A stretch of 64,000 nucleotides of DNA from NCBI GenBank assembly GCA_014925825.1, contig JACGCK010000025.1:62001-126000 (forward strand), read 5' to 3'. The notes beneath the pieces are model-generated. The model made no database searches, had not been told where the DNA came from, and worked only from the letters and a program-made list of their open reading frames with translations. Source of the stretch: Pholiota molesta. Lineage: Eukaryota > Basidiomycota > Agaricomycetes > Agaricales > Strophariaceae. The position numbers and the translations under genes were made by a program. Positions 47,572 to 58,992 of this stretch are shown one piece after another (positions within the stretch are counted from its first letter, which is position 1; every line of letters begins with the position of its first letter).

Positions 47572-48669
47572 TCTTTTAAGTCTACTTCACCGTCCAATCG
47601 CACTACATGGCTCTGTGGAATGTTATGGATACCATGGGCATTCTGCCAACCTATTAATTTCTCAAAATCTCGACATTGATGCCTGGTATTGAAGTCTGGG
47701 TATGGTGTGCTGTAGCCTCTGTGGATCGGAATGAGTAATTGCCAAAGGCGCGATACAGGTTAATTTGATATTACCTGACCCATTCAAAAGTAATCATCCC
47801 GTCATTAGCCGTGCACATTAGGGATTGTCGAAGATCCTCGATGCAGTGCTCTGGACAACAAAATAAAATCAACAAAATAAAATAAAATATGAGTCGGACC
47901 TATAGCTTACCAAGGTGCGTCCGATATGTCTTCGGTTTCGTTTCAGTGAAGAAGGGGTCGACCTTGCCGTAGTGGTCGAAGTATAAGTATTTGCGGAGCA
48001 CGTTCTGGGATGAGTGAAATTCAATATCGGGGTGCGCATTCGGTTTTACCAACATACCAAGCAATGCAGCTCGTGGGCCACCTCTAAGAAGGCCATGTAT
48101 CCACCACCGTCTGCTTCGCTAAACCTGACTTTAGACGGGGTGTCCTCTTTCCCTATCTTCAGGAGTTGCTCTCGTGTCAGACGCAGAAGGCTGACTGCAC
48201 GTATACAATTCACGAGTCGAGTACGGGTGCAAACTTTATCGTGCACTTACCGCCTTTAGAGATTCTATGCCAAGCTTCATCGCGTTCTGGGGTCGGCTCT
48301 CCGCGGTATATGGAAGGAAAGTCGAATGTGCCATTGAAGATCGTGAACTCTTTTGATATTCAATAGCGACATTTGCAGGAGCTAAGTATGAAATCTGGGT
48401 ACTTGAACTAGAATGAAGATCAATTGAGACGTACAGTATGGGAGGTCCACGCCTTGTCTTCGACTGCGTATCCAGGCAGTAAAAAGACAGTGCATAAAAG
48501 CAATAAGATACCATGTGTTACATAGGACCAATGGAAAGTATAGGTAGGCCTTGTTCGAAATGGTGTACCCGCTTCACCGTCATTGGGCGGTGTCCGAGAA
48601 GGGCTTCTGAGATTCGTCTGTCTCCGGGGGTTGCTCCTTTCCAAAAGAGTTCAGATGCTGCTGTAACAT
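47572..48669 (-). CDS. UstYa-family (DUF3328) oxidase
   Basis: The order is diagnostic: a cytosolic N-terminus, a single TM anchor (SYVTHGILLLLCTVFLLPGYAV), LAPANVAIEYQK followed by the IFNGTFDFPSIYRGEPTPERDEAWHRIS block, EVAHELHCL (first HxxHC motif), NVLRKYLYFDHYG, THLEHCIEDLRQSLMC (second His/Cys motif), ITFEWVR, and a C-terminal DFNTRHQCRDFEKLIGW. UstYa proteins are copper-type oxidases that cyclise or hydroxylate RiPP core peptides in ustiloxin-, phomopsin- and victorin-type pathways. Five introns are in phase or nearly so. A base is missing in the A run at about 48351, and the exact start (48669 ATG in another frame, or near 48644) is uncertain. A Kex2-type precursor gene lies 5.3 kb away. 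Confidence 0.82.
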
Positions 48670-51300
48670 CGCGAATCACTGAATTCGTTCGTCCTTGGAA
48701 CATCGGTGCTTTATAGCAAGGCCTGAGAATTGCAGAACTTGGAATGAACTGTCAAACAAGGCGCTGTGCAGATATCAGGAGTATTTTTGATCCCTCTGAT
48801 TCTTTAGGGAACCGAAGGGGATCCCCAGGAATAGAGAAGAAAGTTACTAAATCAATCTACGTCTCAGAGTCATGGAATCATTCTTTCTATTGAGTAAGCT
48901 ACGTGGGAGGCCGTGCCCGTCCATGTGCGCACTATCACATCGAAAGCCAAATTTAGTCTCCAGCTTATCTACGAATTGATGGGCGCAGAAGTGGATAATA
49001 TATCGAGTAGGCGTAAAGGGGCGTTAGTCATGGTGAAAAGGGCAATACAAACAACGGCTAGCATGCAACATATGTCGAAACAAATTACCAACCTTAGAGC
49101 CAATAAACCAACTGAGCGCCGAGTTGGCAAGTGCATGGACAAGTCAGAAGGGCATCGAGCTCTTCAATAAGCAGAGGCGTTCCACAGCCTTCAGATCCAC
49201 TGTCGACGAAGACGAACTGACAATGCCCCAGCGACCGCAGGGCCAAAACCAACCCTGCTTTAATTCAGCAGCCCATATTGGGCGGCGGCGAGGACTAGCC
49301 GAAAGCACAGCAGCAACAGAAAAAAGACGAAAGGCAGCACACACCGACTGCACCAAAGAAAGGGCAGGTGACAACGTTGGCAATGAAAGGCTCACGAAGT
49401 TGGAAAGCGGGCGGTGAAAGGCGTTCTCCAGAGCAAATAGTATTGTCCTCTTTGTCATCAAGAGTCCCGCCCTTCACGCACCGTATCCGAGTTGGGCACA
49501 AGCATGCCACCTTGTGTACGGTCCACCAACGTGGCCACATGCAAGCACAATATATATATAACGGTGCGGCTGGGAGAAAAGGACAAGGCGATAACATAAT
49601 ATAGGGCGCGAGAGACAAAAGAGAAGGAGTGGGCACGAGGTCAGAAGAGATACAAGAAGGAAAGAGGCAAAGAGATCCAGATTATCGAATATCATCAGGA
49701 TCACATAGTTATTGATAAGACAGAGCCCTAAATGGGATTAAGGACGATGTCTGTTGGTAGGCTGGTCGGGGAGAGACGTCGCCGTGACTTCTTCGCCATA
49801 ACGCCATAGCCGCCACGACCAGGTCCAATGGCAATCGATCTTGTACAAGACGCCATTGAGGCGAGGGTGAGGTGGTGAGAATACAGGCAGAACAAATGAA
49901 CGAACTGTAAAGCTCAAGTTCATTCGCTTGCCGACAATGCAGAAGTGGCAACGGTCAGCAATGTGAGGGTTGAAAGTGGCGGATGCAGCGCTAGTGAGTG
50001 AAGAGGGCGAAGGCGCCCAGAATGAGCACAATGACCCATTCTAGGTGCATGCAGTGGAGACGGAAAGGCGGAGCCCAGAACAAGCCGAAATGTTTATTCT
50101 GGACGCCAGCTCGGTTGGGTCGTTGTACGTGCAGAGGGGGCAGAGGTGGTCGGTGAGCGTGCATAGAGTTTCTTGAGCTGGATTTAAGGGGCGAGTGGTC
50201 ATATAAACGAGCCCTTCGTGTTGTGGGCTTGCTGGCGGGGGCACAGAAGTGAATCTGCGTACCATTCCGGCCAGCTCGTTGGCGAGGCAGGCGGCCGTGT
50301 CTGCGTACAAGCCGGCTCATGAAGAGGAATGACCAAGCGGATGCAGAAAAAGCCTGAGTACGGGCGGGTGAGCTTCGTACGAGCTGACGGCGCCAGGGGG
50401 CGCAGCTGGTGCACCGAGTGCACGGAGGACGTACTAGTAGTGCCGAGGAATGTCAGTCTAGCATAGACGTGAACATCGCATATCTCGATCTCAGAGCGCT
50501 CTCCGACGCGCGCGAATATACCTTAGCAAATGTTGTCTATAACTTGGGCCGAGTCGCGCAAGGACTCGGTTGGCACCCAGCTAGATGTCGTGGCCAAGTC
50601 GTCGCGGCCGAGGAACAATGCCCGTCCATCGAAGAAGTCGCGCTCAAGTCGCGCTCGTCTTAGCTGCGGTCCGGTTTGGGTAGAGTGCTTTGAGAAAAAT
50701 GAATGGGCCGTTTTGACGAACAATTGCCGAATGGTGGATGTATGATGCTGGTGGCACAGCTCCCGGAAGAATGGTAGCACTACAAATAACCAGCCCTAAC
50801 ATGTTCAAGTTTCAACGTTCAACGCTCGACGGCAGCAATTCCGAATGTATCGAACTCTTATCGTTTCCCAGTGATTCCCGGAGGAATATCGGGGAGTTTG
50901 GCTATTCTAAGGAAATCCTGGGGCGTATACTTAACAGTTGATTGATTCAACAAAATTTGTCATTTTGTGGTCTCTGGGCTGCCTGGGCAGTCAACCATAT
51001 TCTATTTGACAGTTCATCAATGCATGTAGCTCCGAATACTTCGCGAGTAAGTACCACTCTCCATATATGAAACTTACTGCCATCTCTGGAAAAACTTTCC
51101 GGAAAGGCTCCATCTTGTGAACCTTTCGAATCTAATCTCCACGCGGAGTCATTCTCAGCATCTTATTAAGGATGGCGCGTTTACTGGTTGCGCCGGGCGC
51201 CTGATCAACAGCTTCTCTTGTTTTCATCATCAAGAATCGATAGATTTCAGGTCCATAGCGCGCGAGCCAGAGTAAGGGTATTCCTATTCCTTATGCTCAC
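48670..51300. other. 2.6 kb without a confident gene
   Basis: Open frames on both strands between 49100 and 50780 have no splice-supported continuation. One minus-strand piece ends in a hydrophobic segment (MHLEWVIVLILGAFALFTH, about 49990-50050), but no upstream exon could be attached. Confidence 0.3.
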
Positions 51301-51399
51301 CTCGTAAGTACTCGCACATCATGACTTGCTAGGATTCTCCAATTGTTGAGGATCCTGTACTAGTACGCGAGGACTCATCTTCTCCTCCTTCAATGCATC

Positions 51400-57829: not shown

Positions 57830-58885
57830 TGAAGCTCCCACTTTCATAACGGAAGTCCTTATCAGGGTACCTGTCACAATCTTTTTACTGAGAAATCTAA
57901 TTAGTTTCAACGTAGACAGGACATGGGCCAACATGATCCAACAACGTCACCAATAGTATGTTGAAGGATAGTCGCCTGAATGGAAATTCATAAATACAGC
58001 AACGTCACTAATAGCTGTCCCGAAACAAAATGTCAACGCAAAGTATCCCGATATCTGTAGCCTATACCTTCATCACCACTTCATCAGCACCTATAACGCC
58101 AACAGACGCGGTAAAGAGCGAGCGCGAACTTTCTTGACTGAGGAAAGACGCAATGCAACGTCAACACTGGCACGCATCTCACTGACAGTGCCCAACGTTC
58201 TCATTCCAAACGCGATTCGTGGTTTGGTGAAGGATCATTCCAACTACGGCATCGCTCCTTCCTTGACAAACGGTGGGTTCTGATGTCCATGGGCAACTCT
58301 GGCCGTGGTCAAAGGCATGTTGCTGAGTCCCGGTGATGACTCTGCTCAGTACAACTCAGAAGCTCATTTATGTGATCCATATATTGGTGATGAAGAACGC
58401 AGGAGATGGGTCAAGATCCCAAGATGGATGTTCCTGTTACAAACGGTCAGCGACATCAAAACTCAAAGATCCAGATACATCGCTTTGGGTTCGAAGGTAG
58501 GTGGAGACTTGAACTCGTGTGATAAACTAACAAGAAAAGCACGAGATTCGAGTCAACATGGACAAAAGCAAGGATGGCATTTTCAAAAGCAGTTAAGTAT
58601 ATTCAGTGCCTAAGGTTAGGGTTAGGAGCGCGAACCTTCAAAAGAAAAGCCCGCCCAGCCAGAGTGGCCGAAGCGGGACAGGAAAATATTGAGACGGTGC
58701 ATGAGCGCGAAGCCCATGCAAGCCGCAGACACCCTCTGGGGACATGGTCGCCGTGCTATGGAGCATCTCCGCGGCCCATAGACCAGGATACTGGAAGCGG
58801 CCTGTGCCATCAAGGTAAGTATGACTTGCCCACATGTGCGGCCGTCCTTTATGTACCATTCTATCATGCGCACGGACCACCGTGC
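57830..58885. other. No confident gene
   Basis: Short near-repeats (AGCAACGTCACTAATAG and AACAACGTCACCAATAG, 57940-58010) and a short TTAGGGTTAGG stretch at 58614-58626 are the only structures seen. A 102-codon plus-strand frame at 58305 lacks support. Confidence 0.35.
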
Positions 58886-58889
58886 TGTG

Positions 58890-58992
58890 CGCCTCGCCTA
58901 TCATCATCACGCTCGTCGCGTTTGACTTCAATACAGAGGTCGTCGCATTTGACTTTGGTATCGGGAGATATGTGGAGGTCATTTGCCATTGC
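58890..58992 (-). pseudogene. Decayed copy of the Kex2-type precursor repeats
   Basis: On the minus strand the sequence reads NDLHISPDTKVKCDDL followed by CIEVKRDERDD. This aligns with NISPDTEIKRDELSIEVKRGD of the precursor at 53990-54488. The first dibasic site has mutated to KC. There is no signal peptide exon, and the frame soon ends. It is an inverted, truncated and diverged piece of the same gene family 4.4 kb away. Confidence 0.7.

What the first reader, a model, noticed from the sequence alone, without database searches (positions are those of the whole stretch)
47572..58992. Candidate dikaritin-like RiPP locus in a basidiomycete
Within about 7 kb lie a UstYa/DUF3328 oxidase with both HxxHC-type motifs, a GNAT acetyltransferase and a secreted precursor made of Kex2-bounded repeat peptides. 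A decayed second copy of the precursor repeats and multi-pass membrane proteins are close by. UstYa proteins are the signature enzymes of ustiloxin, asperipin, phomopsin and victorin pathways, whose precursors have exactly this signal-peptide plus KR-repeat plan. The cores here (LNISPDTEI and GDLNVEV types) contain no Tyr, Phe or Trp in the repeats, so any cyclisation chemistry would differ from the known Tyr-based ether bridges. The functional link is inferred from proximity.
Basis: partly seen in the sequence, partly recalled or inferred. Interest (0 to 1): 0.9.

Follow-up and report, generated by a model that had tools for sequence, protein, structure and literature searches.

The report
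Mushroom peptide-precursor and oxidase gene pair
In a Pholiota mushroom genome, a gene for a secreted chain of short repeated peptides lies near an oxidase of the kind that fungi use to make cyclic peptides; the pairing looks real but is not new in kind, and the DNA here is too error-prone to show that the peptide gene is intact.

Summary
The window is Pholiota molesta. A UstYa oxidase (exons 47562-48350, minus; 179.9 bits to PF11807) carries both HxxHC motifs. A diverged GNAT lies at 51464-52250. A signal-peptide start (53990) precedes a KR/RR-bounded repeat array (54253-54488). The 'second copy' is a ~60-bp relic, shared with the other haplotype.

As assembled the precursor is not open: no 0-2-intron path joins signal peptide and KR frame, and the frame changes inside the array. 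That does not prove decay, because conserved eIF2-alpha and SDR genes in the same window switch frame too; indel errors are likelier.

Against it: repeat cores lack Tyr/Phe/Trp/His, I found no further tailoring gene and no precursor homologue, and synteny in other fungi was untestable.

KEP plus DUF3328 neighbours are in print for Basidiomycota (103 of 1680 KEPs, PMC7329392). I call it a plausible new member of a known kind; an unmodified linear amphipathic peptide is the main rival.

The parts
47562..48350 (-). UstYa-family oxidase, five exons (48350-48251, 48194-48058, 48004-47911, 47850-47775, 47718-47562); annotated in NCBI as BJ912DRAFT_1041539 (P0001, 214 aa)
   Evidence: PF11807 179.9 bits; introns; P0001 100% identity over 99% of the query
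48061..48075 (-). HxxHC motif 1 (HELHC)
   Evidence: sequence and translation; aligned columns invariant for H, H and C in 13 of 13 sequences
47843..47917 (-). HxxHC motif 2 (HLEHC), split by an intron at 47910-47851
48351..48650 (-). amino-terminal and membrane-anchor segment of the oxidase, present but spread over different frames in this assembly
   Evidence: frames; relatives P0003, P0006, P0007 and P0017 read through the same segment in one piece
51464..52250 (-). diverged GNAT acetyltransferase in pieces (52250-52080, 51821-51711, 51628-51464), not in one frame
   Evidence: FR47 27.3 bits for two pieces joined with X, 20.4 for all pieces; same subfamily as the C94 GNAT
53990..54065 (+). 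signal-peptide-like exon of the candidate precursor (MKITFAVVALLPFFTIALGAPLEEQ)
54253..54410 (+). 42-nt repeats coding RR/KR-bounded cores of the (STD)LNISPDTEI type; frame changes between the third and fourth unit
   Evidence: TRF 42 x 3.8, 95% matches; frames
54398..54489 (+). 27-nt repeats coding DELSIEV-KR, GDLNVEV-KR, GDLNVEV-stop
   Evidence: TRF 27 x 3.4; unit comparison
58929..58988 (-). relic of the precursor array, same sequence on C125 (about 69.55-69.61 kb)
   Evidence: 86% identity, 59 bp; comparison

Best explanation
A small RiPP-type locus of the dikaritin architecture. A secreted precursor is cut by Kex2 at KR/RR sites in the Golgi into acidic 7-12 residue cores ((STD)LNISPDTEI, DELSIEV, GDLNVEV). 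The neighbouring membrane-anchored UstYa oxidase oxidises the cores, and the GNAT possibly acetylates the product or an intermediate. Because the repeats lack aromatic residues and His, the oxidation would have to fall on aliphatic or amide side chains (hydroxylation, desaturation, halogenation or a non-aromatic crosslink). Shown: oxidase domain and motifs, signal-peptide start, repeat array with dibasic boundaries, GNAT pieces, proximity, and recurrence of both pairings elsewhere in the genome. Inferred: an intact frame in the living fungus, Kex2 cleavage, action of UstYa on these cores, and any role of the GNAT.
For: UstYa 179.9 bits with both motifs. Signal-peptide-like start plus the window's only strong tandem array. 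Between near-identical neighbouring repeats there are 7 differences in the KR frame: five synonymous third positions, one R-to-K that keeps the dibasic site, one that makes the final stop. Recurrence: an 89-aa signal-peptide plus 4-repeat gene lies between two UstYa genes on C79, with an intact allele on C33. Both arrays near UstYa (window, C79) have a signal-peptide-like start within 400 bp, against 0 of 7 control arrays, two of which are alleles of one another (p = 0.028, 1/28 if the alleles are counted once). The C94 UstYa has a GNAT of the same subfamily about 1.1 kb away (Acetyltransf_1 23.7 bits; 25% identity over 124 columns). A UstY-plus-GNAT cluster type is described in lichens (PMC12048977, passages). 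Chance of a UstYa gene within 5.6 kb of one given precursor is about 0.14%.
Against: The precursor is not open in this assembly. Of the repeated sequences of KEPs with a DUF3328 neighbour, 65.6% contain Tyr; these do not (PMC7329392, passages). No tyrosinase, P450, methyltransferase, peptidase or transporter family among the window pieces scanned (40 pieces, a part of the ORFs). No precursor homologue found. Two of the four UstYa regions (C94, C135) show no repeat precursor, and C79/C33 and C135 no GNAT in the pieces scanned. Genome searches with PF00583 and PF13508 (28 and 16 matches) list neither UstYa-side GNAT, so the base rate of that subfamily is unknown. Tandem arrays as such are not denser near UstYa than in controls. 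GNATs normally work in the cytosol, Kex2 and UstYa in the secretory lumen (recalled).
Confidence: 0.45

Rival explanations
1. The precursor is a stand-alone Kex2-processed repeat protein releasing linear, unmodified peptides that self-assemble or coat hyphae (repellent-like), and the UstYa and GNAT genes nearby are incidental. The cores alternate hydrophobic and polar residues like amphipathic beta strands.
For: 94% of Basidiomycota KEPs have no DUF3328 gene within 15 genes (PMC7329392, passages). Cores lack Tyr, Phe, Trp and His. Beta-strand amphipathicity of three cores together is reached by 0.015% of shuffles (the cores resemble one another, so this overstates it). Rep1 of Ustilago maydis is a Kex2-processed precursor of amphipathic peptides forming amyloid-like fibrils (PMC4617103, passages).
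Against: UstYa lies 5.6 kb away in a genome with 8 UstYa gene copies in 65.6 Mb. A second secreted repeat gene also lies between UstYa genes. Rep1 peptides are 35-53 residues, these 7-12. One core alone (DELSIEV) is not unusual (14% of shuffles).
Confidence: 0.35
2. The locus is a decaying remnant: precursor, GNAT and the oxidase membrane anchor have lost their frames.
For: Frame breaks in all three genes. A relic of the array at 58929-58988 is clearly decayed: of 8 changed codons 6 are non-synonymous. Other contig pairs show fewer single-base indels (22 in 18,085 columns for C79/C33 against 15 in 4,739 here). No second copy of the block was found in the assembly.
Against: Conserved eIF2-alpha (34.3-35.5 kb) and an SDR (42.8-43.7 kb) in the same window switch frame inside contiguous conserved residues, and no second eIF2-alpha copy was found, so indel errors explain the breaks. 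A membrane-protein gene at 59.3-60.3 kb differs from its C125 allele by single-base indels. The oxidase exons downstream of the anchor are intact with all splice sites and invariant residues. Changes inside the array are mostly synonymous.
Confidence: 0.15
3. Chance: an ordinary tandem repeat that happens to read KR in one frame, near an unrelated signal-peptide-like ATG.
For: Seven similar arrays occur in 158 kb of control sequence.
Against: 0 of those 7 has a signal-peptide-like start within 400 bp; background is 14 such starts in 148,083 bases, both strands. Dibasic sites bound the units and the KR frame ends in a stop right after a core.
Confidence: 0.05

Closest known systems
Kex2-processed repeat proteins (KEPs) with DUF3328 neighbours in Basidiomycota (PMC7329392)
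   Same: Signal peptide, repeats bounded by KR/RR, DUF3328 gene a few genes away (published mean distance 3.09 genes; here one recognisable gene, the GNAT, lies between)
   Different: Core sequence has no homologue found; frame not open as assembled; no Tyr
Dikaritins: ustiloxin, phomopsin, asperipin-2a, victorin
   Same: UstY-family oxidase with paired HxxHC motifs and a multi-core Kex2 precursor plan
   Different: No aromatic residue in the repeats, a single UstYa, no tyrosinase, P450, methyltransferase or peptidase found; a GNAT instead; basidiomycete
Lichen clan R2 clusters: UstY plus GNAT (PMC12048977)
   Same: UstY signature gene flanked by GNAT acetyltransferases
   Different: Clan R2 has several GNAT copies and no recognised repeat precursor; ascomycete
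Rep1 repellent of Ustilago maydis (PMC4617103)
   Same: Secreted basidiomycete precursor cut by Kex2 into amphipathic peptides
   Different: Rep1 peptides are 35-53 residues; no oxidase partner is described in the passages seen
C79/C33 repeat precursor of the same genome (L015, L018)
   Same: Signal peptide and 42-nt repeats near UstYa genes
   Different: No KR/RR sites, Trp in every repeat, frame intact in both haplotypes, no GNAT in the pieces scanned

Membership tests
UstYa / DUF3328 oxidases | PF11807 match and two HxxHC motifs | tested here: met
   179.9 bits against cut-off 25; HELHC and HLEHC
UstYa / DUF3328 oxidases | amino-terminal membrane anchor in frame | tested here: inconclusive
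   segment present but in other frames; relatives have it in frame; window has indels in other conserved genes
KEP | repeats separated by KR/RR | tested here: met
KEP | signal peptide continuous with the repeats in one reading frame | tested here: inconclusive
   not met as assembled, but the assembly is unreliable at single-base level here
Dikaritin | UstY gene close to a multi-core Kex2 precursor gene | tested here: met
   5.6 kb between oxidase exons and precursor start; functional link not shown
Dikaritin | core with an aromatic residue for the ether or C-C bridge (common, not strictly class-defining) | tested here: not met
   no Tyr, Phe or Trp in the repeat cores
Dikaritin | further tailoring genes (tyrosinase, P450, methyltransferase, peptidase) | tested here: not met
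   none among 40 window pieces scanned with Pfam; only part of the ORFs was scanned
Dikaritin | oxidised cyclic product | not testable with these tools
   needs mass spectrometry
alpha-pheromone-like KEP | STE13 XA/XP dipeptides after the dibasic site | tested here: not met
   residues after the sites are GS, ST, DE and GD
GNAT acetyltransferase | GNAT domain over a curated cut-off | tested here: inconclusive
   27.3 bits (cut-off 22.1) for two X-joined pieces, 20.4 for all pieces

The most novel reading that the evidence does not exclude
An agaric RiPP class in which UstYa together with a GNAT tailors aromatic-free, acidic, beta-strand-patterned cores, so that UstYa would act on aliphatic or amide side chains; UstYa-GNAT and UstYa-repeat-precursor modules are reused within one mushroom genome (here, C94, C79/C33).
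Probability: 0.22. Interest if true: 0.75.

Novelty: new member of a known kind. Interest (0 to 1): 0.45.

Why it matters
The searches I ran (open-licence papers only) showed no UstYa-made peptide characterised from a basidiomycete, although UstYa genes related to this one occur widely in Agaricales, Boletales and Polyporales. If the precursor is a UstYa substrate, it would widen the enzyme's chemistry beyond aromatic bridges. The C79/C33 gene, intact on both haplotypes and with Trp in every repeat, is the easier test case.

Tried and rejected
Pseudogene reading: first favoured because three genes are broken and C79/C33 look cleaner, then lowered when eIF2-alpha and an SDR in the same window showed the same kind of break. 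Pheromone-like KEP: no STE13 signature. Allele test: C125 is colinear (inverted) with window 58478 to about 76.9 kb (C168 coordinates run past the window), then diverges at window 58478 into 5.1 kb with transposon-like ORFs (my impression, not tested) and the contig end; pieces of the UstYa-GNAT-precursor block matched only themselves, the 55.9-58.4 kb piece itself plus 18 paralogous places at 67-77%. Whether the other haplotype lacks the block cannot be told. A 10-kb DNA query did not even list its own locus, so long-query negatives were not used. A structure model of P0001 from 13 sequences was poor (mean pLDDT 60.3) and was not used; no solved structure is related (2 hits at E about 0.8). 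NCBIfam gave nothing. The last search of a held library that could show precursor relatives gave none.
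Full report
Where it is. The window is C168:62001-126000 of a 65.6-Mb, 625-contig assembly. The oxidase matches BJ912DRAFT_1041539 of Pholiota molesta with 100% identity over 99% of the query, on a contig of the same length as C168 (437,235), so the organism is an agaric basidiomycete. The assembly holds parts of two haplotypes: C79 and C33 are about 95% alike over long blocks, and C125 is the partner of the right-hand part of this window.

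The oxidase. Five exons within 47562-48350 on the minus strand join through four GT-AG introns of 53-60 nt. The 187-residue product scores 179.9 bits against PF11807 and carries HELHC and HLEHC. Its relatives (68 proteins at E <= 0.001 among 92 candidates) are mostly Agaricomycetes; the closest covering the full query is Gymnopilus junonius (77%), and a partial Hypholoma protein reaches 80%. In an alignment of 13 of the 68 the H, H and C of both motifs are invariant. Relatives have an amino-terminal membrane anchor. Here that segment is present but lies in other frames, and the annotated model (P0001) lacks it.

The precursor. A start at 53990 reads MKITFAVVALLPFFTIALGAPLEEQ. In the window it is the only one of 933 ATGs open for 25 codons that meets signal-peptide criteria set at its own score. 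An array of 42-nt units (54253-54410) and one of 27-nt units (54398-54489) follow. They read RR/KR-bounded GSNLNISPDTEI, STDLNISPDTEI (twice), LNISPDTEI, DELSIEV, GDLNVEV and GDLNVEV-stop. Between near-identical neighbours there are seven differences: five synonymous third positions, one R-to-K, one that makes the final stop. Between DELSIEV and GDLNVEV there are eight differences, all in codons that change the residue. No path with up to two GT-AG introns of 40-200 nt leads from the start into this frame, and the frame changes between the third and fourth repeat. A stretch between the start and the array reads LAKRHIFNYEPDL in one frame; if it belongs to the precursor, that part does hold Tyr, Phe and His.

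Broken gene or poor sequence? Four other genes in the window bear on this. eIF2-alpha (S1 and EIF_2_alpha domains over cut-off) switches frame three times within about 110 bp (34.70-34.81 kb) across residues that I recall as contiguous in that protein. A DNA search found no second copy (the 16 other places match only a repeat at its edge). An SDR (adh_short) switches frame within residues that I recall as contiguous. A membrane-protein gene at 59.3-60.3 kb differs from its C125 allele by two single-base indels, while an esterase-like gene at 61.8-62.8 kb shows none. Single-base gaps number 15 in 4,739 columns here and 1.1-3.2 per kb in the six other C125/C168 blocks of allelic position, against 22 in 18,085 columns for C79/C33. 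The C125/C168 pair is also more diverged, so the comparison is not clean. Indel errors in C168 are the better explanation, but decay is not excluded. I did not restore any frame.

The GNAT. On the minus strand, pieces at 52250-52080, 51821-51711 and 51628-51464 look like a GNAT. Two pieces joined with X reach FR47 27.3 bits (cut-off 22.1); all pieces joined reach 20.4. The individual 56- and 54-residue pieces gave no hit, and a 37-residue piece gave 18.4 bits.

The second copy. 58929-58988 (minus) matches the array over 59 bp at 86%. Over 20 codons, 8 differ and 6 of these change the residue; one dibasic site is lost. The 75 bases compared are identical on C125, so the relic predates the split of the haplotypes. 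It lies downstream of another gene and has no signal peptide. The main array was found nowhere else in the genome.

Does the pairing mean anything? One search gives 11 matches, which I read as 8 UstYa gene copies: C79 and C33 two each (alleles), C135 two, C94 one, C168 one (four exon matches). That makes four regions. I looked for tandem arrays with a signal-peptide start around each. On C79, an 89-residue gene (450318-450003, minus, one 46-nt intron) codes a signal peptide and four repeats with DTAWLRSL. It lies 4.2 kb from one UstYa and 7.5 kb from the other, and its C33 allele is intact. It has no KR/RR sites, so it is not a KEP. C94 and C135 show no such array. Control: 157,983 bases away from UstYa hold 7 arrays, 0 of which has a signal-peptide-like start within 400 bp, against 2 of 2 near UstYa (p = 0.028). 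Two of the 7 controls are alleles of each other; counted once, p is 1/28. Thresholds were chosen after seeing the cases. Arrays as such are not denser near UstYa. On C94 a GNAT (Acetyltransf_1 23.7 bits, cut-off 20.7) lies about 1.1 kb from UstYa and aligns with the window's GNAT pieces (25% over 124 columns, E 6e-07 for that one comparison). Genome-wide GNAT searches (28 and 16 matches) list neither, so how common this subfamily is stays unknown.

Chemistry. The repeats hold no aromatic residue and no His. In print, 65.6% of the repeated sequences of DUF3328-associated KEPs contain Tyr, against 38.2% of the others; other associated types contain HH or W (PMC7329392, passages). UstYa-family proteins also hydroxylate, chlorinate and take part in transacylation in cyclochlorotine-type clusters, and occur outside RiPP pathways (PMC12048977, passages). 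So a non-aromatic role is possible, but the lack of Tyr counts against the link. The cores alternate hydrophobic and polar residues (shuffles reaching the joint beta moment: 0.015%; single cores 0.16% to 14%), which suits a linear self-assembling peptide as in Rep1 (PMC4617103, passages).

Neighbourhood. Forty pieces of the window were scanned with Pfam. Besides UstYa, the hits were FR47 (sub-threshold), Aldedh, Oxidored_FMN, S1/EIF_2_alpha, Ribo_biogen_C, adh_short, and sub-threshold Abhydrolase_2, F-box-like, Med13_C, DUF1381 and ITAM_Cys-rich. None is a typical dikaritin tailoring family.

Homologues. The precursor ORF found none at E <= 1 among 1028 candidates, and the X-joined pieces none at E <= 10 among 3007. 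Gene callers often miss such genes, and the window's own precursor is not in that protein set either, so this is weak evidence of absence.

Verdict. KEP-DUF3328 neighbours in Basidiomycota and UstY-GNAT clusters in lichens are both in print, so I file it as a candidate new member of a known kind with an orphan, aromatic-free core.

Noticed in passing
L015 (C79:450003-450318, minus) and allele on L018 (C33, start 58520, minus): Intact 89-residue secreted repeat gene (four repeats with DTAWLRSL, no KR/RR) between two UstYa genes; possibly a better RiPP candidate than the window locus.
   Followed up: partly
L020 (C94): UstYa about 49296-49871 minus, GNAT 50975-51334 plus: UstYa beside a GNAT of the same subfamily as in the window.
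   Followed up: partly
window 34270-35500 (+): eIF2-alpha switches frame three times within about 110 bp (34.70-34.81 kb): sign of indel errors in this contig.
   Followed up: partly
window 42780-43700 (+): SDR gene with frame switches inside conserved residues.
   Followed up: partly
window 58478 / C125:70034: Haplotype synteny ends here; C125 continues with about 5.1 kb of ORFs that look transposon-like to me, then the contig ends.
   Followed up: partly
L021 (C135:284000-293900): Two UstYa genes in a head-to-head pair with an ORF (7463-7816) that looks like a proline-iminopeptidase-type hydrolase by eye; Pfam gave no hit at E <= 0.01.
   Followed up: no
window 48971-49705: 71% match to C112:935806-936611; repeat or gene not determined.
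   Followed up: no
window 31081-33827 and C125:61012-63479: Oxidored_FMN (old yellow enzyme type) gene with a diverged paralogue beside the C125 partner of window position about 65-69 kb.
   Followed up: no
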